A stretch of 64,000 nt of DNA from Photorhabdus heterorhabditis. GTDB lineage: Bacteria > Pseudomonadota > Gammaproteobacteria > Enterobacterales > Enterobacteriaceae. Shown here piece after piece: positions 27,589-44,626 of the stretch. Made by a program: the position numbers and the translations under genes. The stretch's first letter is position 1; each line of letters begins with the position of its first letter. The notes under the pieces were generated by a model. That model searched no databases and was not told where the DNA came from. It saw nothing but the letters and a program-made list of their open reading frames with translations. Location of the stretch: contig NZ_RCWA01000026.1 of NCBI RefSeq assembly GCF_018448905.1, positions 1-64,000 of the forward strand, in the 5' to 3' direction.

Positions 27589-27796
27589 TGCCCTTGTTTA
27601 ACCATTTGGAAAATAGTTAGCATGAGATTTATTTGGGAAGAGAATTACATGACTTAGGTAGATAAGCTGTATTTTTTGTAAAGTAAAACTTCATGAGATA
27701 TTGATTGCACGGTACAAAATTAAACATTTAGTTGTCTGCTATTGCTACAGATTTTTCCCTCAAAAGTAGTTCGTTATTTATGCTTTTTAATGTGTT

Positions 27797-27856
27797 TCAT
27801 TGTAAATCACCATTCTGGTCATTTTTTGACACCCGAATATAGCCAATCTTTTCCAT
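27797..27856 (-). pseudogene. 5' fragment of a serine DNA invertase gene
   Basis: Minus-strand 19-codon fragment MEKIGYIRVSKNDQNGDLQ then stop. It matches the first 19 residues of the full invertase at 36351-35779, including the RVS catalytic region (the catalytic Ser is kept). It is part of the 130-bp repeat next to a crossover half-site. Not functional alone. Confidence 0.8.
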
Positions 27857-27930
27857 ATGTAACCCTGCTGAGTACCAATGAGAGACTACCCTTTCGGAAA
27901 TTTCACAGAATAGTGAGTTTTGAAAAATCT
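27801..27930 (+). repeat. 130-bp crossover-flank repeat, copy A
   Basis: Counterpart of copy C at 39633-39762 in inverted orientation, 124 of 130 positions identical by eye and no gaps. Copy B (36296-36423) is a more divergent third copy in the same orientation as A. Each copy holds the invertase 5' end and about 60-75 bp leading to a crossover site. In copy A only the left half of the site remains (TTTTGAAAAATC, 27918-27929). Confidence 0.9.
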
Positions 27931-28281
27931 TCTATATCAGGAGATGTATCAGCTTTTAACCCAGATGGAATGAGTGTAGCTGAGGTAAGTAATCTACCTG
28001 ATTCTTGTGATATTTCTGGCAAATGGCAATATATAAATGGTGCTATTGTTCCGCGTAAGTACACAAAGGTCGAGTTAATGGCTCAAGCAGAGAGACGTAA
28101 AGAAGAATTGCTATCCCTCGCCAGCAATAGTATTGCCTCTTTACAGGATGCCGTTGATCTAGATGAAGCAACTCTGGAAGAGATAGAACAACTCAAAGAC
28201 TGGAAAAAATACCGAATACAAGCAAACCGCATTGATCCCACCATAGCACCAGATATTGGGTGGCCCGCACAACCAGTATAA
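27930..28281 (+). pseudogene. 3' half of a tail fibre assembly (Tfa) chaperone gene
   Basis: In-frame C-terminal 116 codons of a Tfa-family chaperone (GMSVAEVSNLPDS, then the conserved AWKKY-like DWKKYRIQANRID and PDIGWP). The N-terminal 60 residues are missing; upstream sequence is crossover flank. The missing N-terminal half is at 38885-39063 on the minus strand. Joining the two around the shared TT gives one open frame of 177 codons including stop. See the inversion finding. Confidence 0.85.
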
Positions 28282-28288
28282 ATAATAT

Positions 28289-28320
28289 AGGCCCGCAGTT
28301 CACAAACCGCAGGCCTTTTT
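28289..28320 (+). terminator. terminator after the Tfa 3' half
   Basis: AGGCC-C-GC (28289-28296) pairs with GC-A-GGCCT (28309-28316), followed by TTTTT. Plus-strand intrinsic terminator 8 nt after the Tfa stop codon. Confidence 0.75.
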
Positions 28321-28458
28321 CTATCCTAGTTTTTAGGACAATCAATAAGTGCTTATTTGATGCGTCAGGCTTCACTGGAATGAAGAAAATACCAAATCAT
28401 ATTAACTGAATTGATACTTCAAAAACATCGGACTGGCCAACATAGCCAATCATAACTG

Positions 28459-28492
28459 AAAAAAGACCGGAGACAGAATAATGCCCGGTCTT
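28459..28492 (-). terminator. terminator of the H-collar-Tfa operon
   Basis: On the minus strand AAGACCGG pairs with CCGGTCTT (28485-28492 with 28463-28470), followed by a T run. It lies 11 nt past the tfa stop at 28503, closing the V-W-J-I-H-collar-tfa transcript. Confidence 0.8.
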
Positions 28493-28502
28493 GACAATTT
28501 TA

Positions 28503-29099
28503 TCATTCTGGTACTTGTGGCCAATCAATATCTGGGGTTATTGAAGTATCGACACGACTCAGTAATACCAAATACTTCTTCCAGGCAAGTAATAACGCTT
28601 TCTCTGCGTCTGAGGCCATTTCAGTCTCAACAGCATATTGTAATAAAGTCATAGCTTCATTAGCGTGTTGGCGAAGAGTGGCTCGTTGTAGTTCTACTTG
28701 TTCAATCTGACTGTTTTTTTGGGCTTCGATATCTGTTACCCATTTTTCGTCATCCCATTTATCAAAATCGGTAGCGGGTTGTTTAAATGTCAGTATTTCT
28801 GGTAATTCACCTAGTTCAATAATTTCCTGCTGTTTCCCAGTTTGGGTGTTGTAAGCTATTTTTCCGCGATAATCTGGTACAATCAACCAGTTGGTTAAAT
28901 CAGATGAACGGCAGATGACATACCCCTCTTGGGGATCAGGTGGTGCGTCTGTGCAGGAATTGGCAGGAAGACCAATACCAACGGAAAGATGTTCATCAGT
29001 ACTGTTTAGATATTCCAGTGTAATCGCATCGTAATTAAACACAACGATACTTCCGGTACTGATGGCAATATTATTTTTATCCAGTACAGCCTTATTCAT
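28503..29099 (-). CDS. tail fibre assembly chaperone (Tfa family)
   Basis: 198 residues. The N-terminal part is a DUF-type preamble (VLDKNNIAISTGSIVVFNYD), and the C-terminal part is Tfa-like with LLAWKKYLVLLSRVDTS and PDIDWP. These chaperones fold and trimerise the fibre tip encoded just upstream. The start overlaps the stop of the preceding collar gene (shared A of TGA/ATG), so the two are translationally coupled. A truncated paralogue of its N-terminus is at 38224-38397. Confidence 0.85.
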   Translation of the reverse strand: MNKAVLDKNNIAISTGSIVVFNYDAITLEYLNSTDEHLSVGIGLPANSCTDAPPDPQEGYVICRSSDLTNWLIVPDYRGKIAYNTQTGKQQEIIELGELPEILTFKQPATDFDKWDDEKWVTDIEAQKNSQIEQVELQRATLRQHANEAMTLLQYAVETEMASDAEKALLLAWKKYLVLLSRVDTSITPDIDWPQVPE

Positions 29100-29599
29100 C
29101 AGGCAATCCTCACAATGTAATTAAATGCTACGTTTCGCGGACGTGTTTCTGTTCCTGTTGAAGCAAGAATCGCATCGTCCATATAACCGGAACCACCATT
29201 TCCAATTCCGGTAGCGATACCCAATCCACGGCCATCAAATCCGTAGTTAGCATCTTTGGTGACACTATTGAGAATACAGCTCGGTGTACCCAAACCATCA
29301 GCTCCAGCATTTGAGTTAGACCACATTCGACTAAGCCTATGATTATGTGGAGCAATATCAGCCAATTGATTGGAAAGTAGATATCGACCAACATCCACCC
29401 CACGTCCATCATCCCAGCCACGGATAAATTCACCCCGTAAATCAGGTAATCTACCACTAGGATAAACTTCTGCTAATTTTGGATATAAGGATTTATCAAA
29501 GATTGCTCCATTACATTTTACCCATCCATTTGGTGGTATGTTAGTCGGCCAAGGAAGAGGTATTCCCACCGGGATTTCTTCGAGTACAGATGTACTCAT
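29099..29599 (-). CDS. stand-alone tail collar-domain fibre protein
   Basis: 166 residues consisting only of a collar domain (IPVGIPLPWPTNIPPNGWV, CNGAIFDKS, LPDLRGEFIRGWDDGRGVD, ending RPRNVAFNYIVRIA). It is a paralogue of the C-terminal domain of H but has its own start codon, overlapping the H stop by one base. The N-terminus SVLEEIP aligns with GLLEKLIP of H right after the crossover site, so it may derive from a cassette that gained a start. Possibly a second tip protein; function not shown. Confidence 0.75.
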   Translation of the reverse strand: MSTSVLEEIPVGIPLPWPTNIPPNGWVKCNGAIFDKSLYPKLAEVYPSGRLPDLRGEFIRGWDDGRGVDVGRYLLSNQLADIAPHNHRLSRMWSNSNAGADGLGTPSCILNSVTKDANYGFDGRGLGIATGIGNGGSGYMDDAILASTGTETRPRNVAFNYIVRIA

Positions 29600-30732
29600 T
29601 ATGCTGCCCTTACAATATAGTTAAATGCTAAGTTACGTGGCCTTGATACCCCGATGTAACCTGCATTGGTAGTCCAGGTTGTTGCTGAACCTACAGATCT
29701 GGCTCTTAGTGGAATACCGTTAGGTTGTGGTTGAGGAGTATCCCACTGTAACTTTATGCGCTCATTGAGCGAGAAATTAACAACATTATCAGCAGGCTGA
29801 CCAGCAATTTCCTGTAGTAAATAAGAACCTTCCTGCCATACCAATAATGGACGAGATGGATCGACTCCACGCCCAGCATCCCAACCACGGATAAATTCAC
29901 CACGCAAATCGGGCAAATTACCACTGGGATAAGCCTTGGCTAACTCCGGAAATTTCGACTTATCAAAGGCCGCCCCATTACACGGAACCCATCCTTCCGG
30001 TGGTATTTCAGTCGGCCAGGGAAGTGGCACACCGACCGGAATTAGCTTTTCCAATAAACCAAGGTTTTTCACAAAAGCATTTTTGTCAGGGATATCCGCT
30101 CCGTTTTGGTTTTTTGCCAATTTACTATTAGCATTATCATAAGCTGCTTTTACTGCTTTGGGTGTTGCCGCTGTGGTTTCATCATTACTATTAGTCGCAC
30201 TATTAAGTTTTGTAAAACCTTTCTCTGTCAACGTAGCATCTGGGTGATTGCGGCTTTTTTCATGTTTCAGAATTGAACTATCTACATATTCACGAGTTGC
30301 CAGAACTATAGAGGGATCAATTTTCAGTGTTACTGAATCAGTATTACTGATAATTAAGATCATTCTGACAGTTTGTGTTCTACCCGAACCTTCCTGTAAT
30401 TGTGGTTTATAAGTTTCCGGGCAGTTTGCCACCGCAATCAAGTTACCTTCACTGTCAAACAGACCAATTTCACGCATCCACCAGCCCCCCTCACCTTCAG
30501 GGATAATCTGTTCGGCAATAATTTGGTTGGTGTTTACCGGGTCGACACTCAATGTATTAATTGCGGCCCGACGCTTTTCATTAACTAGCTGTGTCTGATT
30601 AACGTCAGGATCAGGTAATTTACCGCCTCCATCACCAACAGCCATGTGAGTAATATCGACTTTTGTTCCCAAAGCAGCAGCATTTGCCAGCTTAGCCGCT
30701 CCCAGTTTGGTTAAAATTGCAAAGTATTTCAT
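29599..30732 (-). CDS. tail fibre protein H
   Basis: P2 gpH-type fibre, 377 residues. Residues 1-150 are the conserved baseplate-binding N-terminus (MKYFAILTKLGAAKLANAAA, THMAVGDGGG, EGGWWMREIGLFD). Residues 155-222 are fibre repeats (HPDATLTEKGFTKLNSATNS, TPKAVKAAYDNA). At KNLGLLE (222-228) the gene contains a crossover site (30049-30074), and the rest is a tail-collar tip. Starts 4 nt inside the 3' end of I. By analogy with Mu and carotovoricin fibres, the tip is exchangeable by inversion. Confidence 0.9.
   Translation of the reverse strand: MKYFAILTKLGAAKLANAAALGTKVDITHMAVGDGGGKLPDPDVNQTQLVNEKRRAAINTLSVDPVNTNQIIAEQIIPEGEGGWWMREIGLFDSEGNLIAVANCPETYKPQLQEGSGRTQTVRMILIISNTDSVTLKIDPSIVLATREYVDSSILKHEKSRNHPDATLTEKGFTKLNSATNSNDETTAATPKAVKAAYDNANSKLAKNQNGADIPDKNAFVKNLGLLEKLIPVGVPLPWPTEIPPEGWVPCNGAAFDKSKFPELAKAYPSGNLPDLRGEFIRGWDAGRGVDPSRPLLVWQEGSYLLQEIAGQPADNVVNFSLNERIKLQWDTPQPQPNGIPLRARSVGSATTWTTNAGYIGVSRPRNLAFNYIVRAA
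29891..30047. repeat. collar-domain DNA repeat, copy 1
   Basis: 157 bp nearly identical (one mismatch by eye) to 38713-38869 in the same orientation. It encodes the first part of the collar tip domain directly after the crossover site in H. The high identity of this block against divergent distal parts (tip ends) is the usual signature of recombining fibre cassettes. Confidence 0.9.
30049..30074. other. invertase crossover site D (inside H)
   Basis: 26-bp site with core AAACCAAGGTTT, flanked by TTCC on the left and CACAA on the right. By recall it matches Salmonella hixL at about 20 of 26 positions, and it matches site B at 23 of 26. The central dinucleotide is AA at 30061-30062 (TT on the coding strand, codon CTT of Leu224). 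It separates the constant N-terminus of H from its tip. Confidence 0.85.
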
Positions 30733-31349
30733 GGTGAAACCCTCAATGTATCTGTATCGATCAAATGAATTGCTGCCCCTAAAGGAGCATTGTCGCTAGT
30801 TGTGATGACGTCAGGGATATATTGGTAAACAGTGAGATCATCTCCACTATAACTTGTCGCAGCGCAATAAAATTCGCCCTTAACATCCAAATTGATTGAC
30901 AAACCTATCAGATGACGACTAACAGGCTTGGCATCAGAAATTAACCGTTCCAGCTCTAAAAAAGTTTCTTCGGTGATGCCGTTTTCCTGTACCCCTATCG
31001 CCAATCGGAATGTGCCTGGTGTTTCATTGTTCTCCCACCATTCCTTTATTTGAATGAGATAGCCTAACGGTTCTACCACGCGACGGACGGCACCAATGGT
31101 TCCTTTATGTTTGTGCAGAAACATCGAGTTTTTTATAACTTCCCGCTTAGTACTCACCGACCAGTTTTCATCCCAACGATCAACCGACCACGCCCATGCG
31201 AGATAGGGTAAAAACTCTGGAGGGCAAGTGTCAGGATTCCAGAGTTTACGGAGTCGTCGTACTTCTATATTTTGCAGTTGCGAACATGCTTTAGCAGCAG
31301 CCAACTCCAAAACGGTAGAACCTGTTGGTAACAGGCGGTCATTCATCAT
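30729..31349 (-). CDS. baseplate/tail protein I
   Basis: P2 gpI-family baseplate protein (wedge component next to J), 206 residues. Recognisable are LPTGSTVLELAAAKACSQ, LPYLAWAWSVDRWDE and the KHKGTIGAVRRVVEPLG motif. It overlaps the 3' end of J by 11 nt and the 5' end of H by 4 nt, as expected for a translationally coupled P2 late operon. Confidence 0.9.
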   Translation of the reverse strand: MMNDRLLPTGSTVLELAAAKACSQLQNIEVRRLRKLWNPDTCPPEFLPYLAWAWSVDRWDENWSVSTKREVIKNSMFLHKHKGTIGAVRRVVEPLGYLIQIKEWWENNETPGTFRLAIGVQENGITEETFLELERLISDAKPVSRHLIGLSINLDVKGEFYCAATSYSGDDLTVYQYIPDVITTSDNAPLGAAIHLIDTDTLRVSP

Positions 31350-32346
31350 AACCTCCCACTATTGGATCTGGCTTAGAGCAATCAGAAGTTTGAATTTTAC
31401 TCAGCTCTAATTTTTTACCAGTGCAGTAAGGAGCTTGATCTTTACACAGAATTATATCCTTCGTCGGAGCTTTCAATTCCACCTGTTTCACCCCAGTTAC
31501 ATGCAGTGCGGCATAGATGGCGGATAACCGAATATCTTTCCCTAACTTATGTTGATCTAGCACGTACTTATCCATATTTTCTTGAGCTAATTTACGGATA
31601 GGCTCAGACTCAGGTGTCCGCTCAAGATAGAGCACAGCATCAATCTGATATTCCATTATTTTGGCTGGTTGCACTTTTACCCGATCAGCAACCGGTCTGA
31701 CATCTTCGTCATTAAGTGCTATAACCACTTTATCCAGTAAGTCTTGTGAAGGTATACCGTTATGTGTTTCATCTTCCTTATCGTCCTTATCTTTTTCCCA
31801 TATCCATTTCTGTGACAAAATAGTGACGGTTACATTAGCCGGTGATGGACTGATGACAGAAACATCCGCAACAGTTTGATATTCACCTTTACCTTTTCCG
31901 TCACCTTTATTGACACTAATACCTTCATTAACTTTAAGGGCATGATATTCATATGCACCTATCGGCCCTGCAACACTTAGCCCTTCAAAGGCTCTCTGGA
32001 TACGGTTACGGAAGGTGCTATCAGGCTCCATAACGGCCCGAGTAACGTTATAGTTCGCACCTAATTGGTCTAAATCGCCATTGGTTGCATAGGCCAGCAT
32101 CACTGCACGAGCCGCTTCATTTACCCGCTGACGCAATATCAATTCTCGGTAAGCATTTTCTTCCAGCAACTTAACCAGAGGTTCGGATTCCAGCTCTAGT
32201 GTTCGAGTAATAGCATCTCGTTGTTCTTCAGGATAAAGAGATATTAATTTGGCTTTACGCTCAGCCAATAGTCTTTCATAATCCAGTGGCTCTACTACAT
32301 CAGGTGGTGGCAGTTGGCTTAGATCTACCAAGTCAATAGTCGGCAT
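31339..32346 (-). CDS. baseplate assembly protein J
   Basis: P2 gpJ-type baseplate wedge protein, 335 residues, a little longer than P2 gpJ. N-terminal signature LSQLPPPDVVEPLDYERLLAERK, then LREN-type helices and the membrane-distal domain (RVNEAARAVMLAYATNGDLDQLGA). The stretch around residues 145-200 (GDGKGKGEYQ, KDKDDKEDETHNG) is a charged, low-complexity insertion relative to what I recall of the family. 4 nt after W. Confidence 0.9.
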   Translation of the reverse strand: MPTIDLVDLSQLPPPDVVEPLDYERLLAERKAKLISLYPEEQRDAITRTLELESEPLVKLLEENAYRELILRQRVNEAARAVMLAYATNGDLDQLGANYNVTRAVMEPDSTFRNRIQRAFEGLSVAGPIGAYEYHALKVNEGISVNKGDGKGKGEYQTVADVSVISPSPANVTVTILSQKWIWEKDKDDKEDETHNGIPSQDLLDKVVIALNDEDVRPVADRVKVQPAKIMEYQIDAVLYLERTPESEPIRKLAQENMDKYVLDQHKLGKDIRLSAIYAALHVTGVKQVELKAPTKDIILCKDQAPYCTGKKLELSKIQTSDCSKPDPIVGGYDE

Positions 32347-32350
32347 TGTT

Positions 32351-32692
32351 TTACCTCACAGGGATGGATAGAGAAAACACCCCAGGAGACAGCTGATAAT
32401 GACCGGATATATCTATTGTCATTTTGCCGTCTTGTTGGGTATTTATGGTGATAGCTGTCAGATTAATTCGTGGTTCCCAGCGGCTGATAGCTGTATAACT
32501 GGCAGCCATAACTTGCAGACGTAGAGCCGCGTTTTGTGGCCAGTCAATTAATTCGGGTAGCAGAGAACCATAAGTGCGACGTTCTAAACGGCTACCTACG
32601 GGGGTTAGTAAGATATCGCTGACAGACTGGCGTACATGTTCCAAATCTGTCAGGCTACGACCGGTTTGCCGGTTCATTCCAAGATACATCAT
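32351..32692 (-). CDS. baseplate protein W (gp25-like)
   Basis: 113-residue wedge protein of the T4 gp25 / P2 gpW lysozyme-like family, needed to start sheath assembly on the baseplate. Conserved stretch: the MYLGMNRQTGRSL start, then VRQSVSDILLTPVGSRLERRTYGS and LIDWP. The start overlaps the stop of V by one base. Confidence 0.92.
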   Translation of the reverse strand: MMYLGMNRQTGRSLTDLEHVRQSVSDILLTPVGSRLERRTYGSLLPELIDWPQNAALRLQVMAASYTAISRWEPRINLTAITINTQQDGKMTIDISGHYQLSPGVFSLSIPVR

Positions 32693-33531
32693 TATACTGG
32701 ACCTCCTGTTGTCGCACCGCCTGCCATGACGCCGGAGTGTTGGTGAGAATGTAAGGTCACACCATTAGAACTGAGTTTTCCGCCTGTGTTTTCAACATCA
32801 CCTTCCAATTTAATTTTTGACGCTTTCAGACCCATTTCTTTTCCTGCTTTTAGTCCAATCTCGTTTTTTGAGTCCAATCCAATTTTATTAAGTGCTTCTA
32901 GTCCAATCTCGTTTTTTGAATTCAATCCAATTTTGTTGTACGATTCCAATCCAACTTTGTTGTATCCATTTATCCCAATTTCGTTGTACGACTCCAATCC
33001 AATTTTGTTGTATGCCTTTAGTGTTATATTCGTTGCCTCAAGTGTTATGGAATTTGCAGCTTTCACACTGGCAGTCTTAATACCTTTTACCACTAAAGCA
33101 CCAAATTTCGGCTCATACTCCATTACAGCCCCATCGGGGAAAGCAATATGAACAGCTTGTTCAGAACGAGGCGGTGATGCCAGAGATTGATCAGAATAAA
33201 TGGCCGGTAATCCACCATCAGGAAAATCAATATGGTCAGTTTCTGTAGGGAGAGTCGATGGCTCTGGAAATTGATTAGAATAAACAGCCGGTAATACAAA
33301 GGATGTGGTCAATTCACCGCCAACAGATAATAGCAAAACTTGCTCACCACGGCTGGGAGCCCACCAAGTACGGGAATTACCCGCTCGCATTGTCAACCAA
33401 GGTCTCCAGTCAGTTTCGAGATTACCTGTCGCAATTCGACACATTCCTCGCTGAGTATCTACCTCGGTAACAACACCAGTTCTGATCAGGTTACGTAATA
33501 AGCGTAGAAGTTCTGTTAGTTGTGTATCCAT
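32692..33531 (-). CDS. baseplate spike protein V
   Basis: P2 gpV-type membrane-piercing spike, 279 residues. An N-terminal OB-like domain (VVTEVDTQRGMCRI, RTWWAPSRGEQVLLLSVGGE) is followed by a beta-helical shaft and tip. Residues 174-237 are eight consecutive octads of type xNKIGLES (YNKIGLES, YNEIGING and so on), longer than in P2. The tip HSHQHSG carries the HxHxH-like motif that binds iron in P2 gpV. First gene of V-W-J-I-H. Confidence 0.93.
   Translation of the reverse strand: MDTQLTELLRLLRNLIRTGVVTEVDTQRGMCRIATGNLETDWRPWLTMRAGNSRTWWAPSRGEQVLLLSVGGELTTSFVLPAVYSNQFPEPSTLPTETDHIDFPDGGLPAIYSDQSLASPPRSEQAVHIAFPDGAVMEYEPKFGALVVKGIKTASVKAANSITLEATNITLKAYNKIGLESYNEIGINGYNKVGLESYNKIGLNSKNEIGLEALNKIGLDSKNEIGLKAGKEMGLKASKIKLEGDVENTGGKLSSNGVTLHSHQHSGVMAGGATTGGPV
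32821..33012 (-). repeat. 24-bp tandem repeats encoding spike octads
   Basis: Eight degenerate 24-bp units in gene V. Units read TCC-AAT-CC-AAT-TT-type on the plus strand, each encoding one turn xNxIGLxx. Octapeptide repeats with a conserved Gly build the triple beta-helix of T4 gp5-like spikes. The nucleotide similarity between units suggests recent expansion. Confidence 0.8.
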
Positions 33532-34033
33532 ATTCGGAAAAATGCCATGTAGGTAGTTATGGGTTTATGTTTGGAAGAATGACATTAAAGGTAGCGGTAG
33601 ACATTAAAGACGAATTGTAGGAAAGGTCAGACAAATTTCTTGGAAGGTAAAGACTATAACAATATGAATTAAAAAGCCTTTTCCTTAAAGGGAAAGGCTT
33701 TTTAATAATCTGTAGGTGGTTTTTCTATCAACGCTTAATGCAGTAATCTAAGGAATTCCAATGTTGTATTGTCTAATCGTATGCTGGATATAAGATACTA
33801 AAGGTAAGCTGATTACAGATAATTCTTGCTCGAATGTCGAAAACAATACAGTTACAATTTTTTTCCAGAATATCCTGTAAAATGCGGATAGGTTTTATTT
33901 GCTCTTAAAAGGCCAGTAGATCAAGCCATACTCCTGGCAACGCTGGTAAAAATAGAGTGATAATCCTTTGAAAAAACAATCAAACTAACACTACCATAAA
34001 TGGCATGGTTGTATTCACGCCCATTCGTTACCT
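33532..34033. other. gene-free gap between V and X
   Basis: About 500 bp without a supportable gene, in the place where P2 carries holin, lysozyme, lys genes and tail-completion genes R and S. It holds a strong bidirectional hairpin (33671-33703) and would also contain the promoter of V on the minus strand. I could not identify remnants of lysis genes. Confidence 0.6.
33671..33703. terminator. bidirectional intrinsic terminator between X and V
   Basis: AAAAAGCCTTTTCC (33671-33684) pairs with GGGAAAGGCTTTTT (33690-33703), with A and T runs on both sides. It can stop minus-strand transcripts from X, so V-W-J-I-H probably has its own promoter. Confidence 0.85.
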
Positions 34034-34276
34034 TTAATCCCAGAGTTGCAGAATAGGTTTTGTTGCAGTTGGCATAATTTCAGGCATTTCAACTTCAGTG
34101 CCATGTGGCAGGATTACGCTATATTCAGATTCGGACAATTCCGGAAATTTTTTAAATATCAATTCAACCAATCCTGGATTAGCTTCTAAAACACGTTCAG
34201 TCATACCCTGAGTTCGGCCATAGTGGCGCCAGCACAAGGCATCAACAGTATCATTTTGCTGTGCAATTATTTTCAT
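34034..34276 (-). CDS. tail protein X
   Basis: 80 residues, P2 gpX family, a small LysM-like tail protein thought to sit at the spike/hub or act in assembly. The typical start MKIIAQQNDTVDALCWRHYG and the LPHGTEVEMPE end are conserved. In P2 it lies upstream of the lysis genes; here it is followed by a gap and a terminator before V. Confidence 0.9.
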   Translation of the reverse strand: MKIIAQQNDTVDALCWRHYGRTQGMTERVLEANPGLVELIFKKFPELSESEYSVILPHGTEVEMPEIMPTATKPILQLWD

Positions 34277-34391
34277 TAGGTAATCTCTATTACAAGAAAT
34301 ATTGTTAAATTAGAGTACCATGGTGTGCCAATAAAAGAGGGGAAACAATGAAACAACATTGTTAGAGCCATAGTACAAATGAAAAGCAAGA

Positions 34392-34416
34392 AGCCACTTT
34401 TCAGTGGCTAATTTTT
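34392..34416. terminator. hairpin terminator between X and the small upstream gene
   Basis: AGCCACT (34392-34398) pairs with AGTGGCT (34403-34409), followed by AATTTTT on the plus strand and a TTCTTGCTTTT tail on the minus strand. On the minus strand it would end transcripts of the small gene at 34498-34662. Confidence 0.65.
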
Positions 34417-34497
34417 CAATACAATCATAACCAACTTAGAAACTCTAGATTATTTATCATACAAAAACTCCACATGCGTACTGTTTATTTGTCGCAT

Positions 34498-34662
34498 TTA
34501 TTCTTCACGTGTTTCGTGACAATTAATAAGTTGTTTCGTAAGTGGCGTCGATAATTCTGCAATCCAAGTCAAAGCTAGCTCTTTATCTTCAATATGATTA
34601 CATTCACAGCTTATTGCCATTCTGGCAATAAAATTAATACGTTGCGCTATTACTGATTCCAT
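34498..34662 (-). CDS. small hypothetical protein divergent from the repressor
   Basis: 54 residues from the ATG at 34662 (MESVIAQRINFIARMAISCE), with GGA at a workable distance; a longer reading from 34722 has a Cys/Tyr-rich start and looks less likely. Predicted mostly helical, no helix-turn-helix or membrane segment evident. It occupies the place of the first lytic gene opposite the CI gene. Family not recognised. Confidence 0.4.
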   Translation of the reverse strand: MESVIAQRINFIARMAISCECNHIEDKELALTWIAELSTPLTKQLINCHETREE

Positions 34663-34722
34663 AAGAAAGTCCACTGACAAACTTACCCCCGTATAACATA
34701 ACTGTATATAAGGACAGTACAC

Positions 34723-35059
34723 CTTGATTAGAAAAAATTAAAGGGATTTTTTATCTTTTTTAAGAACTATATTTGATAGTGTTAATATATTAATTATTGT
34801 TTTTATTGAAATAATTAATGATTAAAAAGGTTTCTTTCCTATCACAATCCGTTGTAATTAATAAGTTTTTCTTATTTTATTACTTAGAAGATTTTTGCTA
34901 TTTATTTAGATTGTATAGTTTCACAAAGTATATAGATTGAAATTTAGATGCCCATGATGCAATATCATTCGTTGGATCTAGTAAATTTATTTGGAATCAC
35001 TATAGCTCTTTAATTAGAGAGAGTTGTGGAGAAGAAAAACTCACTAAACTGTACTTTAA
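34723..35059. promoter_or_regulatory. divergent control region of the element
   Basis: 337 bp, very AT-rich, between the repressor gene (plus) and the small minus-strand gene. It should contain the repressor operator(s) and two divergent promoters. I see no clear palindromic operator set. AATTAAT-type repeats around 34788-34820 are the only pattern. Confidence 0.4.
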
Positions 35060-35674
35060 ATGAAAAAAAATGTAACTGAGATAAAAATGGGTGCAGATAG
35101 TGGAGGAAAACAAGCTATCGAACGCCTTGTTAGTGCATATGGGTTTAAATCACGTCAAGCACTAAGCGACCATCTAGGTGTGTCTAAAAGCACAATGGCA
35201 AACCGGTACTTAAGAGATAGCTTTCCAGCAGATTGGGTTATTCAATGCAACCTTGAAACCAATGCTTCATTGTTATGGCTAAGCACAGGGCAAGGAGACA
35301 TGTTCCCTGATGGAGAAAAGAAAAAGGAGTCTTTAGAAAACATTATCACTCCGACAATACAGCGGGTTAAATTAGTTGGTGGAAAGTTGAACGCTGACAA
35401 CCCTGTGACTTTAGATACTCAACTTATTGCCAGAGAAATAAGAAAACCTCTCATTGTAGATAACAATAACACTTGGTATTTGTTGGATACAAAAGAACCT
35501 GATGTTCAGGATGGTTTATGGTTAATTGATATTGAAGGAATGCATAGTATTAAAAAGATCACAAAAATCCCGGTCGGTAAAATCAGGGTATGTGATAATG
35601 ATGTGACCTTTGATTGTGCAATTGATGAGATTAACTTCATTGGTCGAGTTTACCTGATGATTTCCAGGTACTGA
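35060..35674 (+). CDS. CI-type phage repressor
   Basis: 204 residues. The N-terminal helix-turn-helix (GFKSRQALSDHLGVSKSTMANRYLRDSFP, residues about 29-57) and LLWLSTGQGDMF are typical of the Bacteriophage CI repressor family as in phage 186. The C-terminal half resembles a LexA/CI-like beta domain. I cannot confirm a Ser-Lys self-cleavage dyad. Probably keeps the tailocin silent until DNA damage. Confidence 0.85.
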   Translation: MKKNVTEIKMGADSGGKQAIERLVSAYGFKSRQALSDHLGVSKSTMANRYLRDSFPADWVIQCNLETNASLLWLSTGQGDMFPDGEKKKESLENIITPTIQRVKLVGGKLNADNPVTLDTQLIAREIRKPLIVDNNNTWYLLDTKEPDVQDGLWLIDIEGMHSIKKITKIPVGKIRVCDNDVTFDCAIDEINFIGRVYLMISRY

Positions 35675-35778
35675 AAGTTTTTTTCATTGTCGATAAATTA
35701 ATTTTTTCAGATATGTAAATCCATGCTTGATGGCAATCTGTTGTCTAAGTAAACGTTTAGTTAGCTGAACCTAAAATA

Positions 35779-36351
35779 TTAAGTTGATCGGTAATCTGTT
35801 TTATTTACCGGAAAATATTTATATATCGTGGATAACGATGTGTTGTAGATCAATGATAATTGTTTCCGCGAATGGCCTTTAGCCAACAATCTTGCGGCCT
35901 GTTGCTGTTCAGCAAATGAGAATGATACAGGTCTGCCACCTATTCTTCCCTGAGCACGAGCAGCTATTAATCCTGCATTTGTTCTTTCAACGATCAATTC
36001 CCGTTCCATTTCAGCCAGTGCACTCATAACGTGAAAGAAAAACCTCCCCATAGAGGTACTAGTATCAATACTGTCAGTCAGGCTTTGAAAATGAATACCA
36101 CGTTCACTTAAATCAGAAATTAAAGTAACCATATTTTTTACGCTACGTCCCAGTCGATCAAGTTTCCAAACAACTAAAGTATCCCCTTTTTTAAGTTGCT
36201 TTAAAGCTCGTTTTAAACCTGGTCTGTTGGCTGTTTTTCCACTGATTTTATCCTCAAAAATCTGCTCACAATTTATACTTATCAGAGCGTTTCGCTGTAA
36301 ATCACTGTTTTGGTCATTTGTTGACACCCTGACATAACCAATCTTCGCCAT
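35779..36351 (-). CDS. serine DNA invertase (Gin/Hin/Pin family)
   Basis: 190 residues. The resolvase catalytic domain starts IGYVRVSTNDQN with catalytic Ser10. RLGRS (the Arg cluster) lies near residue 68. The E-helix (FFFHVMSALAEMERELIVERT) is followed by GRIGGRP and a C-terminal helix-turn-helix (HSRKQLSLIYNTSLSTIYKYF). It should invert DNA between the crossover sites B and D. Its 5' end lies 63 bp from site B and it reads away from it, the Mu gin arrangement. Two 5' fragments are repeated at 27.8 and 39.7 kb. Confidence 0.95.
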   Translation of the reverse strand: MAKIGYVRVSTNDQNSDLQRNALISINCEQIFEDKISGKTANRPGLKRALKQLKKGDTLVVWKLDRLGRSVKNMVTLISDLSERGIHFQSLTDSIDTSTSMGRFFFHVMSALAEMERELIVERTNAGLIAARAQGRIGGRPVSFSFAEQQQAARLLAKGHSRKQLSLIYNTSLSTIYKYFPVNKTDYRST

Positions 36352-36423
36352 GTTTAATCCTGTTTAATACCAATAGGAGACTATTCTTATAGAAATTATC
36401 ACGTATTAGAGAATTTTGAAAAA
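36296..36423 (+). repeat. crossover-flank repeat, copy B (attached to the intact invertase)
   Basis: Third, more divergent copy of the 130-bp flank found at 27801-27930 and 39633-39762. It includes the invertase start and leads directly into intact crossover site B. I estimate roughly three quarters identity to A and C by eye. Confidence 0.75.
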
Positions 36424-36439
36424 CCTTGGTTTGATGGAA
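36414..36439. other. invertase crossover site B
   Basis: 26-bp site with core AAACCTTGGTTT (the reverse complement of the core in site D), central TT at 36426-36427. It differs from site D at 3 of 26 positions and is in inverted orientation to it. It is the upstream boundary of the knob fibre cassette and lies next to the invertase gene. Confidence 0.85.
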
Positions 36440-37420
36440 ACAGTAAATTTAGCGAAAAATGCGGTGCCTAATAGCAGGAAAGTGAATGGAAAGGTGTTGT
36501 CTGGGGATATCAATATTACGTCTCAGGATATCTTTGATGGGCAAGCAGTCACTATCCCTGAAAAAATCAATTTGAATGATTACAAAACACCAGGTGTTTA
36601 TGTTCAATATGCCAACGCCTCAGCAGAATCTGGTACTAATTATCCTGAACCTCTGGCCGGTTCGCTTATTGTGTTGAAAGCTGCGGGGATCATTCAACGC
36701 TATTTTGTTTATAACAGCAGCCGGATATATACTCGCTCCTTAAATGACATCGGAGTATGGACATCTTGGGCTAGGGAATATAATACACTGAATAAACCGA
36801 CTGCCGTAGATATTGGGGTTTATACACAAACGGAATCCGACTCTCGATATATTACAGGAATCCGTAAGATAAATGGTAAGGCTCTATCCAGAGATATCGA
36901 TATTACTTCTCAAGACATATTTAATGGGCAAGCTATTTATTTAGGTGATAAAGCGAATTTAGATAATTACAAAATACCAGGGGTTTATTATCAAGATTAT
37001 AATGTTCATGCCCAAAATGGTGCTAATTATCCTGAGCAACTTGCTGGTTCTCTTATTGTGTTGAAAGCTGCGGGGATTATTCAACGCTATTTTGTTTATA
37101 ACAGCAGCCGGATATATACTCGTAGCCAATATAATGATTTACCATGGACTCCTTGGACTAGGGAATATAATACATCAAATCCCCCTTCTGTTGGAAATTT
37201 GGGCGTATATACAAAAGAAGAATGCAATAGTCTTTACATTTCTAACATCCGCCTTGGTGTTGAAGTACAAATAGGAGCTGGTGGTGTGTTGGAATATCAC
37301 GGCCCTAATGTGTTAACTGGGTTTTATAATAGAGATAGGGATTATTCCGCTGAGACGTTATATTGGAGTCCTATTCAATTTCTTAAAAATGGTCAATGGA
37401 TCACTATTGTACGAGGATAA
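36416..37420 (+). CDS. silent alternative fibre tip cassette (pyocin-knob type)
   Basis: Open frame of 334 codons with no proper start or ribosome binding site; it opens in the crossover site (LKNLGLMETVNLAKNAV). Two tandem copies of a 145-residue unit (VNGKVLSGDINITSQDIFDG to TREYN, with PLAGSLIVLKAAGIIQRYF) resemble pyocin-knob fibre domains, then YTKEE-type repeats and the end FLKNGQWITIVRG. In the frame of H the join would be KNL/GLM, giving a 554-residue fibre. Probably expressed only after inversion between B and D. Confidence 0.8.
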   Translation: MKNLGLMETVNLAKNAVPNSRKVNGKVLSGDINITSQDIFDGQAVTIPEKINLNDYKTPGVYVQYANASAESGTNYPEPLAGSLIVLKAAGIIQRYFVYNSSRIYTRSLNDIGVWTSWAREYNTLNKPTAVDIGVYTQTESDSRYITGIRKINGKALSRDIDITSQDIFNGQAIYLGDKANLDNYKIPGVYYQDYNVHAQNGANYPEQLAGSLIVLKAAGIIQRYFVYNSSRIYTRSQYNDLPWTPWTREYNTSNPPSVGNLGVYTKEECNSLYISNIRLGVEVQIGAGGVLEYHGPNVLTGFYNRDRDYSAETLYWSPIQFLKNGQWITIVRG

Positions 37421-37425
37421 AAATA

Positions 37426-37962
37426 ATGAATTTGGTAAATCTTGGCCCATTTAAGCAATATATACCTGACAGTGAAGACGCTGTACAGTTTGCTCTTTAT
37501 CTTCAGGATAAGCAAGGTAATGATTGGTATACATCTCAAAATCAATTCTCAACAGAAACATTAAAGATTATGTATGATAATAATGGTCTCATTCGTGCAA
37601 TAACGACGGATGTATCTAAATTTGCACCGCTTGGTTTTTCTGTTGCAGAAATTAATAAGAATGATGTGCCTAAAGAGTTTGACGAAAACACCAATGAAAA
37701 ATGGGTATTTGATGGTTATAAAATATTTCCTTATGTCGCAACTAAAGAAGAATTAATTAGGAAAGCAGAACATGAAAGAATTCAGTTACTAGTTAAATCT
37801 AATAATATTATAGTTCCATTACAAGATGCCATTGATTTAAATATAGCGACAGAAGAAGAAAAAAACATTCTATTGGAATGGAAAAAATACCGAATAATGC
37901 TTAGTCGAGTTGATATTTCAACCGCACCAGAAATTGTCTGGCCAATTCCACCATTATCGTAG
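37426..37962 (+). CDS. tail fibre assembly chaperone (Tfa) of the knob cassette
   Basis: 178 residues from the ATG at 37426, 5 nt after the cassette stop. A typical Tfa start (LVNLGPFKQYIPDSEDAVQF), MYDNNGLIRAITTDVSKFAP in the middle, and LLEWKKYRIMLSRVDIS and PEIVWP at the end. It is intact and collinear with the knob cassette, so tip and chaperone would switch together. Confidence 0.88.
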   Translation: MNLVNLGPFKQYIPDSEDAVQFALYLQDKQGNDWYTSQNQFSTETLKIMYDNNGLIRAITTDVSKFAPLGFSVAEINKNDVPKEFDENTNEKWVFDGYKIFPYVATKEELIRKAEHERIQLLVKSNNIIVPLQDAIDLNIATEEEKNILLEWKKYRIMLSRVDISTAPEIVWPIPPLS

Positions 37963-37973
37963 CTTATAAAAAT

Positions 37974-38010
37974 GACCGGGGTTAGGATAACTCCCGGTCT
38001 TAATAAATTT
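37974..38010 (+). terminator. terminator of the knob cassette
   Basis: GACCGGG (37974-37980) pairs with CCCGGTC (37993-37999), followed by a T/A-rich tail. It closes the knob-Tfa cassette; the analogous GACCGG stem closes the H-tfa operon at 28.46 kb. Confidence 0.75.
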
Positions 38011-38223
38011 ATTGTAGTATCTTCAGTCACTTATTCAATAACAGAAGCCAGTGAAGTATTAACCTTGCTCAGTAATACCATATATTATCAGTGTGTTTGA
38101 ATGTCAACATTTCCGAGTGATTTTTTATTGTTCAAGGACTTTGATACTATAGGCTATTTTTACAAGATAATCAGATATCTATTATTAGCATGCTAATTTT
38201 GCACTATGACAAATAGCATATCC

Positions 38224-38397
38224 CTATCTTTCGGTAAGTAGCCATTCAACACCAGAGTGTACGGGAATTTCTATACCAATAGTCAGAAATTTTTTACTGT
38301 TATCTAAATATTCTCCGGTAACTACATCATAATTAAATACAGTGATATTACCTGGCCCTATAAAAATATTATTTCCATCTAAAATAGTTGTAATCAT
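38224..38397 (-). pseudogene. truncated Tfa-type gene after the orphan collar cassette
   Basis: 57 codons, MITTILDGNNIFIGPGNITV at the start, ending LLTER. It matches the N-terminus of the chaperone at 29099-28503 (same NNI...VFNYD...EYL order) but stops before the Tfa domain. The start overlaps the collar stop, mirroring the coupled arrangement at 29099. Likely a decayed copy of that gene. Confidence 0.65.
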
Positions 38398-38884
38398 TAT
38401 GCTGCTCTCACAATGTAGTTAAATGCGATATTACGCGGACGTACTCGAAAAGCAGATAATCCAACTGCACCACTTGGTACTAATGACGTGCTTGTCGTGT
38501 AATACGGGCCACTGCCGGTAGTACTATCTTCAAAATCACTGGCCATAATTTCTGATGGATAAGCACGGGAATACGTATTAACAGGAGGTGATACCAATAT
38601 CCCCCTATCAGCAGAAGCCGCGTGAACATAAACGCTGGGTAATCGTGTTGAATTTTGTTGTGACAGCAATGCACGTGATTGATCGACCCCACGCCCATCA
38701 TCCCAGCCGCGAATAAATTCACCACGCAAATCGGGCAAATTACCACTAGGATAAGCCTTGGCTAACTCCGGAAATTTCGACTTATCAAAGGCCGCCCCAT
38801 TACACGGAACCCATCCTTCCGGTGGTATTTCAGTCGGCCAGGGAAGTGGCACACCGACCGGAATTAGCTGTTCCACCAAACCAA
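38397..38884 (-). pseudogene. orphan collar-type fibre tip cassette
   Basis: 160-codon collar tip without an N-terminal fibre part (GLVEQLIPVGVPLPWPTEIP at the start, RVRPRNIAFNYIVRAA at the end). The first 157 bp are a near-identical copy of the H tip. It begins at a crossover half-site (AAACCAA at 38878-38884) that is now joined to a chaperone fragment instead of a full site. Silent unless moved behind H. Confidence 0.8.
38713..38869. repeat. collar-domain DNA repeat, copy 2
   Basis: Partner of 29891-30047 with one visible mismatch, same orientation, 8.8 kb apart. Confidence 0.9.
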
Positions 38885-39063
38885 CGGATTACATTATTAA
38901 AATCATACATTACTTTGATTGTGTCAGGATTAAAGCTTTTCTGGCATTCATACCAGTCTTGGTCGTCTTCTGACTTCAAATAAATGACATTAAAATCTTC
39001 AATGATTTTTCTGGCTTGTTTTGAGTCTGGTGTATATTGGGAAAAATTTTTAATGTTTTGCAT
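38885..39063 (-). pseudogene. 5' half of a Tfa chaperone gene
   Basis: Starts MQNIKNFSQYTPDSKQARKI at 39063 with an AGGGTG site upstream and stays Tfa-like to MYDFNNVIR, where it runs into the collar cassette and out of frame. The matching 3' half (SISGDVSAFNPDGMSVAEV) is at 27930-28281 on the plus strand. Compare the intact paralogue at 37426, which reads MYDNNGLIRAITTDVSKFAP across the same point. The break lies at a TT dinucleotide shared by both junctions. Confidence 0.85.
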
Positions 39064-39078
39064 ATATTCATCACCCTA

Positions 39079-39645
39079 CTAAATATTGGATATATTCATC
39101 CATATGCCGTTAACCTTTTTCTGTATTGGCCTCGATTTACGGTATCAACTAACTCATTTCTATTTCCATTTATTACAGCAGTAGTGGCATACCCACTTGT
39201 GTCTGTATCTCCATAATTTACCCGTACTTGTGCGTACTCTTTGGCACCAAAGCGAATGTCTTGAATATAACGCGTGTCTGATTCTGATTTTGTATAAGCG
39301 CCAATAATCGCAGCGGTTGGTCTATATCCTTCATGATAGACCTGATACCTCCTAACTCGAAGATTATCGTGTCTAAGGCTCATCCATTCATTAGTCGGTC
39401 CTCCAGAGAGGGCATGCTGCCATTTGAAATATTCGTTACCATTATCCCCCGTTTTAAACCACATATAGGAATCTGCATCACCATCTCCGGTGTTTTTAAA
39501 ACCGATAGAGGCAAAGTCGGTGTTTCTGTTCCAACTCAGCATAGAGTCAGTAGTAATAGTTATGTCACCTGTTACATTGCCCCCGCTACGTTGCAACGCG
39601 TCTGCGGCTTTAGTAACGGTTTCCACTAAACCAGATTTTTCAAAA
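39079..39645 (-). pseudogene. alternative fibre tip cassette with frameshift
   Basis: Opens at crossover site C in the frame FEKSGLVETVTKAADALQRS and continues with GGNVTGDITITTDS, YMWFKTGD and IIGAYTKSESDTRYIQDIRFG. The frame ends early with RGQYRKRLTAYG. In the adjacent frame the canonical fibre end RPIQKKVNGIWMNISNI followed by stop at 39079 is readable, so there is a one-base frameshift near 39135-39145. Tfa starts 15 nt further on. Confidence 0.8.
39621..39645. other. degenerate crossover site C
   Basis: Aligns with site B and the rebuilt A/E site but is 25 bp: one of the two central bases is missing and the core reads AAACCAGATTT. Serine invertases need matching central dinucleotides, so this site is probably inactive. 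It bounds the frameshifted fibre cassette. Confidence 0.75.
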
Positions 39646-40046: not shown

Positions 40047-41219
40047 ATGGCACAAGATTATCATCATGGCGTCCGTGTACAGGAAATTAACGAAGGTACA
40101 CGCACCATCACCACAATTAGCACCGCTATTGTTGGTATGGTCTGTACTGGCCCTAAAGCAGACGCAGACGCTTTTCCATTAAACACCCCGGTTTTGATTA
40201 CTGATGTTTCGATGGCAATTGGCAAAGCGGGTGATGCCGGTACATTGCCTCAGGCACTTAAAGCTATCGCAGACCAAGCTAAACCCGTTACTGTTGTTGT
40301 CCGTGTAGAACAAGGTGAAACGGAAGGTGATACCACCACCAACATCATTGGTACTACAACTAGTGAAGGTAAGAAAACGGGCATGCAGGCACTGTTGGCA
40401 GCACAAGGCCAATTAGGTGTTAAGCCACGTATTCTGGGGGTTCCTGGGCTGGATACAAAAGCTGTTGCTGTTGAATTGGCGAGTATTGCGCAAAAACTAA
40501 GAGCAATGGCTTATATCAGTGCTTATGGTTGTAAGAATAAAGAAGAAGTTGCCGAATATCGTAAAAACTTCAGTCAGCGAGAAGTGATGCTGATTTGGCC
40601 TGATTTCTTAGGTTGGGACTCTGTTCTCAAAAAAGAATCTATCGCCTACGCTACTGCCCGAGCACTGGGCCTGCGGGCAAAAATTGATGAAGAAACGGGT
40701 TGGCATAAAACTCTGTCAAACATCGGTGTCAATGGTGTGACGGGTATTTCAGCAGACGTATTCTGGGATCTGCAAGATCCAGCAACTGATGCTGGTTATC
40801 TAAATGAAAAAGGCATCACGACACTTATCCGCAAAAACGGATTCCGTTTCTGGGGTTCTCGTACCTGCGCTGATGATCCATTGTTCCAGTTCGAAAGTTA
40901 CACCCGCACTGCTCAGGTGCTGGCTGATACCATGGCGGAAGCACATATGTGGGCAATCGATAAGCCTCTGACTGCTTCACTGGTACGAGACATTATCGAA
41001 GGTGTTAACGCCAAGTTCCGTGAATTGAGGTCCGGGGGGTACATCATTGATGGTAAATGCTGGTACGACGAAAATGCCAATGATAAAGACACTCTGAAAG
41101 CGGGTAAATTGACCCTCGATTACGACTACACACCTGTACCACCACTGGAAAATATGATGTTACGCCAGCGTATTACAGATCGTTACCTGATGGATTTCGC
41201 GAAAAGCATAAACGGCTAA
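40047..41219 (+). CDS. contractile tail sheath protein FI
   Basis: 390 residues, P2 gpFI family. N-terminus [20 protein letters not shown], the domain with [16 protein letters not shown], and the C-terminal [13 protein letters not shown] and [20 protein letters not shown] are conserved. Six-fold rings of this protein surround the tube and contract to drive the spike. A GGAG site lies upstream; FII follows after 10 nt. Confidence 0.95.
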
Positions 41220-41229
41220 GGGGACACAG

Positions 41230-41745
41230 ATGGCATTACCTCGCAAACTTAAATACCTGAACTTGTTTAATGACGGCAATAGTTATCAGGGAATAGTGGA
41301 AGAACTTATTCTGCCTAAGCTGAGTCGTAAACTAGAAACCTATCGTGGCGGTGGTATGAACGGTAGCGTGACGGTGGACTTGGGCTTGGATGAAGGTGCA
41401 TTGGATGTTGAATTTACTCTGGGAGGTATGGAAGCTCAGCATTATCGGCAGTGGGGAATAACTAAAGCCGACGGCGTAATGTTGCGTTTTGCGGGTTCCT
41501 ACCAGCGCGATGATACCAATGATGTGATTGCTGTTGAAATCGTGATGCGTGGCCGCTTCCATGAGTTTGACCATGGCACTTATAAGCAAGGGGATAATAC
41601 TCAGACCAAAATCAGCGCTAAAAACACCTATTTCAAACTGACATGGGATGGTGAAGTTCTGATCGAAGTGGATACCGTTAACATGGTTGAAATTGTTAAT
41701 GGTGAAGATCGTCTGGCAGATCATCGCCGCGCTATGGGTCTTTAA
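41230..41745 (+). CDS. tail tube protein FII
   Basis: 171 residues, P2 gpFII family, the inner tube. MALPRKLKYLNLFNDGNSYQ at the start and YRGGGMNGSVTVDLGLDEGAL in the first half are typical. GGGGACA precedes the start. Directly after the sheath gene as in P2 and R-type pyocins. Confidence 0.95.
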   Translation: MALPRKLKYLNLFNDGNSYQGIVEELILPKLSRKLETYRGGGMNGSVTVDLGLDEGALDVEFTLGGMEAQHYRQWGITKADGVMLRFAGSYQRDDTNDVIAVEIVMRGRFHEFDHGTYKQGDNTQTKISAKNTYFKLTWDGEVLIEVDTVNMVEIVNGEDRLADHRRAMGL

Positions 41746-41771
41746 TCTAATCGGATAAACAAGGTTGAACC

Positions 41772-42089
41772 ATGACAGAAACACTCATTACTCAAAACGA
41801 CGAGCAGCGCACAATCGTATTAGAAGAACCACTTGCACGTGGTAATAGCAACATCACTGAAGTGGTGGTGCGCAAACCTAACAGTGGAGCGCTGCGTGGT
41901 GCTCGGCTACAGGCTTTGCTGGAGATGGATGTGGACTCAATGATGCTAGTTTTGCCACGTGTTACCACTCCCGCTCTCACTAAAAGCGACCTGTTGGCAA
42001 TGACACCGGGCGATCTGATTAATTTCAGTGTTGAGGTGGTCAATTTTTTGTTACCGAAGTCGGCGAAATCCGGTTTCCAGACCGACTAA
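41772..42089 (+). CDS. tail assembly protein E (frame-0 product)
   Basis: 105 residues, P2 gpE family, a tape-measure chaperone. It contains the slippery heptamer TTTTTTG at 42044-42050 near its 3' end, the same heptamer used for the -1 frameshift in P2 E/E'. A fraction of ribosomes should shift and make E-E'. Confidence 0.88.
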   Translation: MTETLITQNDEQRTIVLEEPLARGNSNITEVVVRKPNSGALRGARLQALLEMDVDSMMLVLPRVTTPALTKSDLLAMTPGDLINFSVEVVNFLLPKSAKSGFQTD

Positions 42090-44624: not shown

Positions 44625-44626
44625 TT

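What the first reader, a model, noticed from the sequence alone, without database searches (positions are those of the whole stretch)
27901..39063. A fibre chaperone gene was cut in two by a 10.95-kb inversion at a secondary invertase site
Seen: a Tfa 5' half (39063 to 38885, minus) ends after MYDFNNVIR, and a Tfa 3' half (from 27932, plus) begins at SISGDVSAF. Both junctions share a central TT (27930-27931; AA at 38883-38884 on plus). Joining 179 nt + TT + 350 nt gives 531 nt, an uninterrupted 177-codon Tfa that aligns across the join with the intact copy at 37426 (IRAITTDVSKFAP). The reciprocal join rebuilds a full 26-bp crossover site (TTTTGAAAAATC, TT, GGTTTGGTGGAA). Known: Gin/Hin enzymes cut with a 2-bp stagger at the central dinucleotide. 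Inference: the invertase used a quasi-site inside tfa and flipped 27931-38884. Undoing it makes X-V-W-J-I-H collinear with FI-D, as in P2.
Basis: partly seen in the sequence, partly recalled or inferred. Interest (0 to 1): 0.9.

Follow-up and report, generated by a model that had tools for sequence, protein, structure and literature searches.

The report
Tailocin fibre-gene inversion splits a chaperone
In this Photorhabdus strain an 11-kb stretch of a phage-tail-like killing particle's genes has flipped, cutting a fibre-assembly gene in two exactly where the local DNA-flipping enzyme would cut; a near-identical strain still has the unflipped order.

Summary
Window 27931-38884 is inverted relative to a strain 99.8% identical over 19 kb (L083, IMG/VR). 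L083 1-9794 matches window 48676->38883 and L083 9793-19362 matches 27930->37517; the matches overlap by exactly the TT and are base-identical for 2,084 and 2,124 nt on either side. In L083 the fibre chaperone (tfa) is whole and V-W-J-I-H runs with FI-D. The other breakpoint is the TT core of a 26-bp Gin-type crossover site, whole in P. asymbiotica and P. australis. A Gin-like invertase (71% identical to Mu's) lies inside the segment. Invertase-made inversion is by far the best explanation.

Corrections: the locus is a four-site, four-cassette inversion system whose baseplate block flips between two intact sites (4 of 12 genome loci oppose FI), so V-H orientation proves nothing. The tfa "quasi-site" is not site-like in sequence (10 of 24 positions; 28 of 67 TT positions score as well). 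Yet CRCIA-P01 is broken at the same two bases, evidently independently. Outer site S4 (39620-39645) had already lost one core base, so the tfa cassette was probably silent beforehand. Two of four cassettes now look stranded.

The parts
27747..27930 (.). outer arm at the glmS end: remnant of an invertase 5' end plus the left half of crossover site S1
   Evidence: 88% inverted repeat of 39633-39816; tblastn match to invertase residues 1-35
27918..27931 (+). S1 left half-site plus TT core, now joined to tfa
   Evidence: left half exact; right half 8 of 12 positions wrong
27931..28281 (+). tfaB 3' half (fibre assembly chaperone)
   Evidence: Caudo_TAP 1.4e-34; contiguous with the 5' half in relatives
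28503..29099 (-). tfaC, chaperone of the Hv cassette
   Evidence: Caudo_TAP
29099..29599 (-). fib2, second fibre tip gene (Collar)
29599..30732 (-). H fibre: constant part 30075-30732, switchable tip Hv 29599-30048
   Evidence: Phage_tail_fib, Phage_fiber_2, Collar; site S2 between the parts
30049..30074 (-). crossover site S2, intact, TT core
   Evidence: 0 mismatches; mean 0.00 matches in 100 shuffles
30729..33531 (-). baseplate genes V, W, J, I (coding order V to I)
   Evidence: Pfam
34034..34276 (-). tail gene X
   Evidence: Phage_tail_X
35060..35674 (+). CI-like repressor
35779..36351 (-). Gin-family DNA invertase, full-length frame
   Evidence: Resolvase + HTH_7; 70.7% identical to the Mu invertase
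36414..36439 (+). crossover site S3, intact, TT core
36416..37420 (+). fibA fibre tip cassette
   Evidence: position after S3; homologues in relatives; no Pfam match
37426..37962 (+). tfaA, intact chaperone of fibA
   Evidence: Caudo_TAP
38397..38882 (-). Hv3 fibre tip, apparently stranded by the inversion
   Evidence: Collar; 93% identical to the tip next to S1 in P. asymbiotica
38871..38884 (-). orphan S1 right half-site plus TT core, joined to tfaB 5' half
   Evidence: right half exact, left half 6 of 12 positions wrong
38885..39063 (-). tfaB 5' half
   Evidence: 94-97% nt identity to seven intact relatives, 90% to P. tasmaniensis; identical in L083
39096..39635 (-). fibB fibre tip, partner of tfaB
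   Evidence: 83-90% aa identity in G004, G007, G008, G009, G010; 73% in G011; partial in G005
39620..39645 (-). crossover site S4 with one T of the core missing
   Evidence: same loss in L083
39633..39816 (.). outer arm at the FI end, invertase 5' remnant
27931..38884 (.). inverted segment, 10,954 nt
   Evidence: L083 against window
40047..46161 (+). FI, FII, E, T, U, D tail genes
   Evidence: Pfam for FI, T and D; the others named by order and size only

Best explanation
A P2-type R-tailocin locus of Photorhabdus carries four fibre-tip cassettes and four Gin-type crossover sites. S1 and S4 lie at the outer ends, S2 in the fibre gene H, S3 beside the invertase. Normal inversions between sites choose which tip is fused to the H stem. 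In the window strain the invertase paired the outer site S1, which then led into tip Hv3, with a TT inside tfaB near S4. It cut both at the two-base core and rejoined them reciprocally, inverting 10,954 nt without gain or loss of a base. This split tfaB and parted S1 into two half-sites. Shown: the two arrangements in two near-identical strains (one junction), core-exact breakpoints, a full-length invertase and intact sites. Inferred: that the invertase did it, the direction (the intact form is ancestral), the reciprocal S1|Hv3 junction in this species, and the consequence that Hv3 and fibB-tfaB can no longer be switched into H, leaving a two-way switch at S2 x S3.
For: L083 has the unflipped order, with matches overlapping by exactly the TT and 2,084 + 2,124 identical nt around it. 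Eight other species-level genomes have tfaB whole. The S1|Hv3 site is whole in P. asymbiotica. Both breakpoints lie at the core of one 26-bp site and no base was lost at the junctions. The invertase is full-length and Gin-like. S2 and S3 are perfect sites. Relatives' assemblies hold alternative forms, as expected if the system is active: two P. australis contigs share a 6,384-nt block (99.97%) with different tips at S3, and two P. luminescens DSM 3368 contigs differ by a flip at S2/S3 (true second copies are not excluded). CRCIA-P01 shows a core-exact break at the same tfa TT, joined to the other outer site.
Against: The tfa position matches the site at only 10 of 24 non-core positions; 28 of 67 sense-strand TT positions in the cassette score as well or better, and a weight matrix from 18 sites ranks it 75th-193rd of about 1,010 positions in nine intact copies. 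Other half-site fusions in relatives have cores TC, TA or AA, so not every broken site in this family fits a core-matched exchange. The S1|Hv3 junction was not seen in a conspecific strain. No reads were available to rule out an assembly error. A shared origin of the window and CRCIA breaks is not rejected by the tfa tree alone (p-AU 0.18 and 0.16), though L083 argues against it.
Confidence: 0.93

Rival explanations
1. Assembly error: a short-read assembler joined the wrong ends in a repeat-rich, heterogeneous fibre region.
For: Draft genome of 226 contigs; inverted arms of 184 nt at 88% and tip repeats at 93% in the region; relatives' assemblies do carry alternative forms.
Against: At both new junctions the joined pieces share only the TT, not a repeat that an assembler would confuse. 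Both fall on the enzyme's core. CRCIA-P01 has the same kind of junction. The own assembly holds no copy of the intact tfa junction.
Confidence: 0.04
2. Illegitimate recombination unrelated to the invertase that happened to break here.
For: The tfa side does not resemble a crossover site; other half-site fusions in relatives lack the TT core.
Against: The other side breaks exactly at the core of a known site; the exchange is reciprocal and conservative; a second species broke at the same tfa dinucleotide.
Confidence: 0.03
3. The inverted form is older in this species, and L083 is a later re-inversion between the two hybrid sites.
For: Each hybrid keeps one good half-site and the same core, so back-recombination is possible.
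Against: tfaB is whole in eight other species-level genomes, so the whole form is most likely ancestral for the genus and this needs an extra step.
Confidence: 0.04
4. The window and CRCIA-P01 breaks are one old event passed on, rather than two events at one hot spot.
For: Same two bases joined to the same kind of half-site; clade not rejected (p-AU 0.18 and 0.16).
Against: The window's 3' half is identical to the unbroken L083 copy over 348 nt and 10.3% different from CRCIA's. The window keeps tfa 5' and fibB; CRCIA has neither beside its half, and its genome has only one weak fibB match elsewhere.
Confidence: 0.06

Closest known systems
Mu Gin / P1 Cin tail-fibre inversion systems
   Same: Gin-family serine invertase (70.7% to Mu), 26-bp sites with a 2-bp core, tips swapped behind a constant fibre stem
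   Different: Four sites and four cassettes; the flipping segment carries the baseplate genes and the invertase; the core is TT
Cin quasi-site inversion (Iida and Hiestand-Nauer 1986, 1987)
   Same: Inversion between a true site and a non-site that shares the central dinucleotide (content recalled; only the two references were seen, in a reference list)
   Different: Here found as a standing difference between natural strains, and inside a fibre chaperone gene
p15B Min multiple inversion system (recalled)
   Same: Several crossover sites shuffling several fibre tips
   Different: Not compared here by sequence
Carotovoricin Er / Ein of Pectobacterium (Nguyen 2001, seen only as cited in passages of PMC13195805)
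   Same: Tailocin with an invertase-switched fibre locus; complex rearrangements reported
   Different: No break of a chaperone at a non-site in the passages seen
Xenorhabdicin fibre inversions (PMC13280938, passages)
   Same: Tailocin fibre segments found in both orientations in sister strains
   Different: Those loci lack an invertase gene, according to that paper

Membership tests
Gin/Hin/Cin-type DNA inversion system | Small serine recombinase with catalytic and HTH domains | tested here: met
   PF00239 and PF02796; solved DNA-invertase 4m6f E 7e-83
Gin/Hin/Cin-type DNA inversion system | 26-bp inverted crossover sites with a 2-bp core, flanking an invertible segment | tested here: met
   S2 and S3, TT core, in inverted orientation; alternative orientations among relatives
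Gin/Hin/Cin-type DNA inversion system | Fis-bound recombinational enhancer | not tested
   no search made
Gin/Hin/Cin-type DNA inversion system | Invertase-dependent recombination shown by experiment | not testable with these tools
   needs an assay
Quasi-site inversion | Breakpoint at the shared central dinucleotide, conservative and reciprocal | tested here: met
   overlap of exactly TT at the tfa junction, no base lost; the reciprocal site only in other species
Quasi-site inversion | Partner sequence resembles the crossover site better than chance | tested here: not met
   10 of 24 non-core positions; 28 of 67 TT positions equal or better; weight-matrix rank 75-193 of about 1,010 in 9 intact copies
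P2-type R-tailocin | P2-like tail genes V, W, J, I, H, X, FI, T, D | tested here: met
   Pfam; FII, E and U were not scanned
P2-type R-tailocin | No capsid or packaging genes in the locus | tested here: inconclusive
   ORFs of 60 aa or more listed for 18000-50000 and many translated, but not every ORF was scanned

The most novel reading that the evidence does not exclude
A cryptic hot spot inside a fibre chaperone: the tailocin invertase has cut the same TT of tfaB at least twice, once by inversion (this strain) and once with loss of the fibB tip (CRCIA-P01), although the spot does not look like a crossover site. Off-target use of the invertase would then be a recurrent natural route by which Photorhabdus prunes and freezes its tailocin fibre repertoire.
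Probability: 0.45. Interest if true: 0.6.

Novelty: new member of a known kind. Interest (0 to 1): 0.5.

Why it matters
Quasi-site recombination by Gin-family enzymes is known mainly from laboratory work (recalled). Here two near-identical natural strains show the before and after to the base, and a second species shows the same spot used, evidently independently. That makes it possible to ask what, other than site-like sequence, directs an invertase off target, and whether off-target inversion shapes tailocin killing repertoires.

Tried and rejected
P. tasmaniensis S1 (L052 about 3827) first looked like another hybrid site, but it aligns through with a normal site region at about 73%, so it is ordinary decay. 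P. bodei S4 joins the left half-site to the interior of fibB with AA at the core position: either a mismatched-core exchange or an unrelated deletion, left open. P. khanii S4 has left half + TT + sequence with no useful match outside itself (one 14-nt hit), partner unknown. P. khanii S1 is degenerate. Predicting the tfa break from sequence failed. A clade test of window + CRCIA was indecisive. One viral-contig pattern was badly written and could not have matched the S1|Hv3 site; searches replaced it. One search found only the CRCIA-like contig; one search found the S1|Hv3-type site in one contig (L185, IMG 644736399), not studied further. Structure prediction was not needed.
Full report
WHERE. 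The window is part of contig C26 of a Photorhabdus genome (13 genus genomes held). By glmS the strain groups with P. australis and P. asymbiotica. Between glmS-rpmE and an asd-like gene lies a P2-type tailocin: V, W, J, I, H, X on the minus strand, FI to D on the plus strand, a CI-like repressor and one full-length serine invertase. The invertase is 70.7% identical to that of phage Mu and matches the solved DNA-invertase 4m6f at 7e-83.

WHAT THE LOCUS IS. Perfect 26-bp sites with a TT core lie in H (S2, 30049-30074) and beside the invertase (S3, 36414-36439); none is expected by chance. Relatives have two more at the outer ends, S1 near glmS and S4 near FI, usually next to a remnant of an invertase 5' end. 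P. asymbiotica, P. noenieputensis, P. luminescens, P. namnaonensis and G007 show all four, and P. australis does over two contigs. Each site leads from a constant side into a fibre-tip cassette, so it is a four-site, four-cassette switch. Activity is suggested by P. australis, whose two contigs share a 6,384-nt block at 99.97% with different tips at S3, and by P. luminescens DSM 3368, whose two contigs differ by a flip at S2/S3; true second copies are not excluded. The baseplate block is opposed to FI in 4 of 12 genome loci (window, P. australis, P. noenieputensis, P. namnaonensis) and runs with it in 8 (P. akhurstii, P. asymbiotica, P. luminescens, P. khanii, CRCIA-P01, P. bodei, P. tasmaniensis, G007). 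Its orientation is therefore best read as a phase state, not a trace of the event in question.

THE BREAK. tfaB is in two pieces: 38885-39063 (-) and 27931-28281 (+). Of 10 species-level genomes with a close 3' half (9 of 13, plus P. akhurstii), 8 have both halves contiguous. In those, homology to the window switches from one side to the other at the TT, with a G for the first T in the divergent P. tasmaniensis. Aligned apart to the intact tfaA, the halves cover residues 5-56 and 58-177, residue 57 being the codon across the break.

THE DECISIVE COMPARISON. L083, an IMG/VR contig of a strain 99.8% identical, carries the unflipped order. L083 1-9794 equals window 48676->38883 with 21 mismatches; L083 9793-19362 equals window 27930->37517 with 6 mismatches and one 18-nt gap. 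The overlap is exactly two bases, the TT. The identical runs at the break are 2,084 and 2,124 nt. Its tfaB is whole and V-H runs with FI-D. The inversion therefore separates two strains of what is, by identity, one species, and since other species have tfaB whole, the window most likely has the derived form. L083 ends inside tfaA in 49 nt of other sequence, whose core occurs exactly six times in the window's own genome; four of the six lie 99 nt from a contig end, and the contig lengths of the other two were not seen. This looks like an insertion sequence. So the S1|Hv3 junction of that strain is not seen. That junction is whole in P. asymbiotica (L045 3460-3485) with a tip 93% identical to the window's Hv3.

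MECHANISM. Both breaks fall at the core of a crossover site, on one side a true site. The exchange is reciprocal with no base gained or lost at the junctions, and the enzyme is encoded inside the segment. This is what a Gin-type enzyme makes (staggered cut at the central dinucleotide; established knowledge). That the partner in tfa is a quasi-site rests on the outcome, because its sequence is unremarkable: 10 of 24 non-core positions match, 28 of 67 sense-strand TT positions in the fibB-tfaB cassette score as well or better, and a weight matrix ranks it 75th to 193rd of about 1,010 positions in nine intact copies from eight genomes. The Cin quasi-site work of Iida and Hiestand-Nauer (1986, 1987) is the closest precedent; I saw only the two references, in the list of PMC4134206, and recall their content.

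A SECOND BREAK AT THE SAME SPOT. In Photorhabdus sp. CRCIA-P01 (L048; also IMG contig L087, 100% identical over 16,948 nt and so probably the same strain) the tfaB 3' half is joined at the same TT to the left half of S4, and fibB and the 5' half are gone from there. Only these 2 of 13 genus genomes hold such a junction (up to 1 mismatch). The only fibB match in that genome is a weak one elsewhere. The window's 3' half is identical to the unbroken L083 copy and 10.3% different from CRCIA's, so the window's break is evidently a separate event; a tree test alone does not decide (p-AU 0.18 and 0.16). If any of the 67 TT positions were equally likely, the coincidence would be about 1 in 67: suggestive, not proof of a hot spot.

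OTHER BROKEN SITES, FOR AND AGAINST. P. khanii has an outer left half-site with TT joined to sequence of unknown origin, and P. bodei one joined to the fibB interior with AA in the core. In P. noenieputensis, P. akhurstii, P. luminescens, G004 and some IMG contigs fibB itself starts with an orphan right half-site whose core is TC or TA. These show that sites in this family are fused to other sequence repeatedly, but also that not all such fusions carry the TT expected of a core-matched exchange.

CONSEQUENCE. Hv3 has lost its left half-site. S4, leading to fibB, lacks one core T, as it does in L083, so fibB-tfaB was probably unusable before the inversion, which would explain why breaking tfaB was tolerated. 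What remains is a two-way switch at S2 x S3 between Hv-fib2-tfaC and fibA-tfaA. This last step is inference.

LITERATURE. Searches of the held library, judged by the listed titles and abstract starts, showed no paper on this Photorhabdus switch or on a natural break of a fibre chaperone at a non-site; the lists were cut at 15 rows, and most subscription journals are not held. Passages only were read in PMC13280938, PMC5903667, PMC4134206 and PMC13195805.

Noticed in passing
window 39620-39645: Crossover site S4 lacks one T of the TT core, in the window and in L083; this one-base loss was not seen at outer sites of other loci, some of which are damaged in other ways.
   Followed up: yes
window 27747-27930 and 39633-39816: Remnants of an invertase 5' end flank both outer sites and recur at outer sites in relatives; they might be kept because they carry a regulatory or enhancer sequence.
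   Followed up: no
L043 15141; L044 8986; L046 2998; L065 418; L089 416: In several species fibB begins with an orphan right half-site (core TC or TA) behind the start of another tip, as if two tips had been fused at a half-site.
   Followed up: no
L045 13838-14488; L042 7925-8575: P. asymbiotica and P. australis carry what looks like a fifth kind of fibre tip at an outer site where other species have fibB-tfaB; the two are 90% alike and match none of the other loci compared beyond a short end.
   Followed up: partly
L083 19363-19411: The contig of the near-identical strain ends inside tfaA in sequence whose core occurs exactly six times in the window's genome, probably an insertion sequence that breaks tfaA there.
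   Followed up: partly
L048 14399; L087 10000: CRCIA-P01 has the tfaB 3' half joined to the S4 left half-site at the same TT.
   Followed up: yes
L051 8412; L047 14034: Outer half-sites joined to the fibB interior (P. bodei, AA core) and to unidentified sequence (P. khanii, TT core).
   Followed up: partly
window 32831-32998: Short repeats of 24-nt period inside the spike gene V; V varies more between species than the neighbouring gene W.
   Followed up: no
window 38119-38397: Remnant of a chaperone gene (40% to tfaC residues 1-93) behind Hv3, so Hv3's own chaperone was probably already lost.
   Followed up: no
window 27742-28281: Chance open frame running from the invertase remnant into the tfaB 3' half; easily misannotated as a gene.
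   Followed up: no
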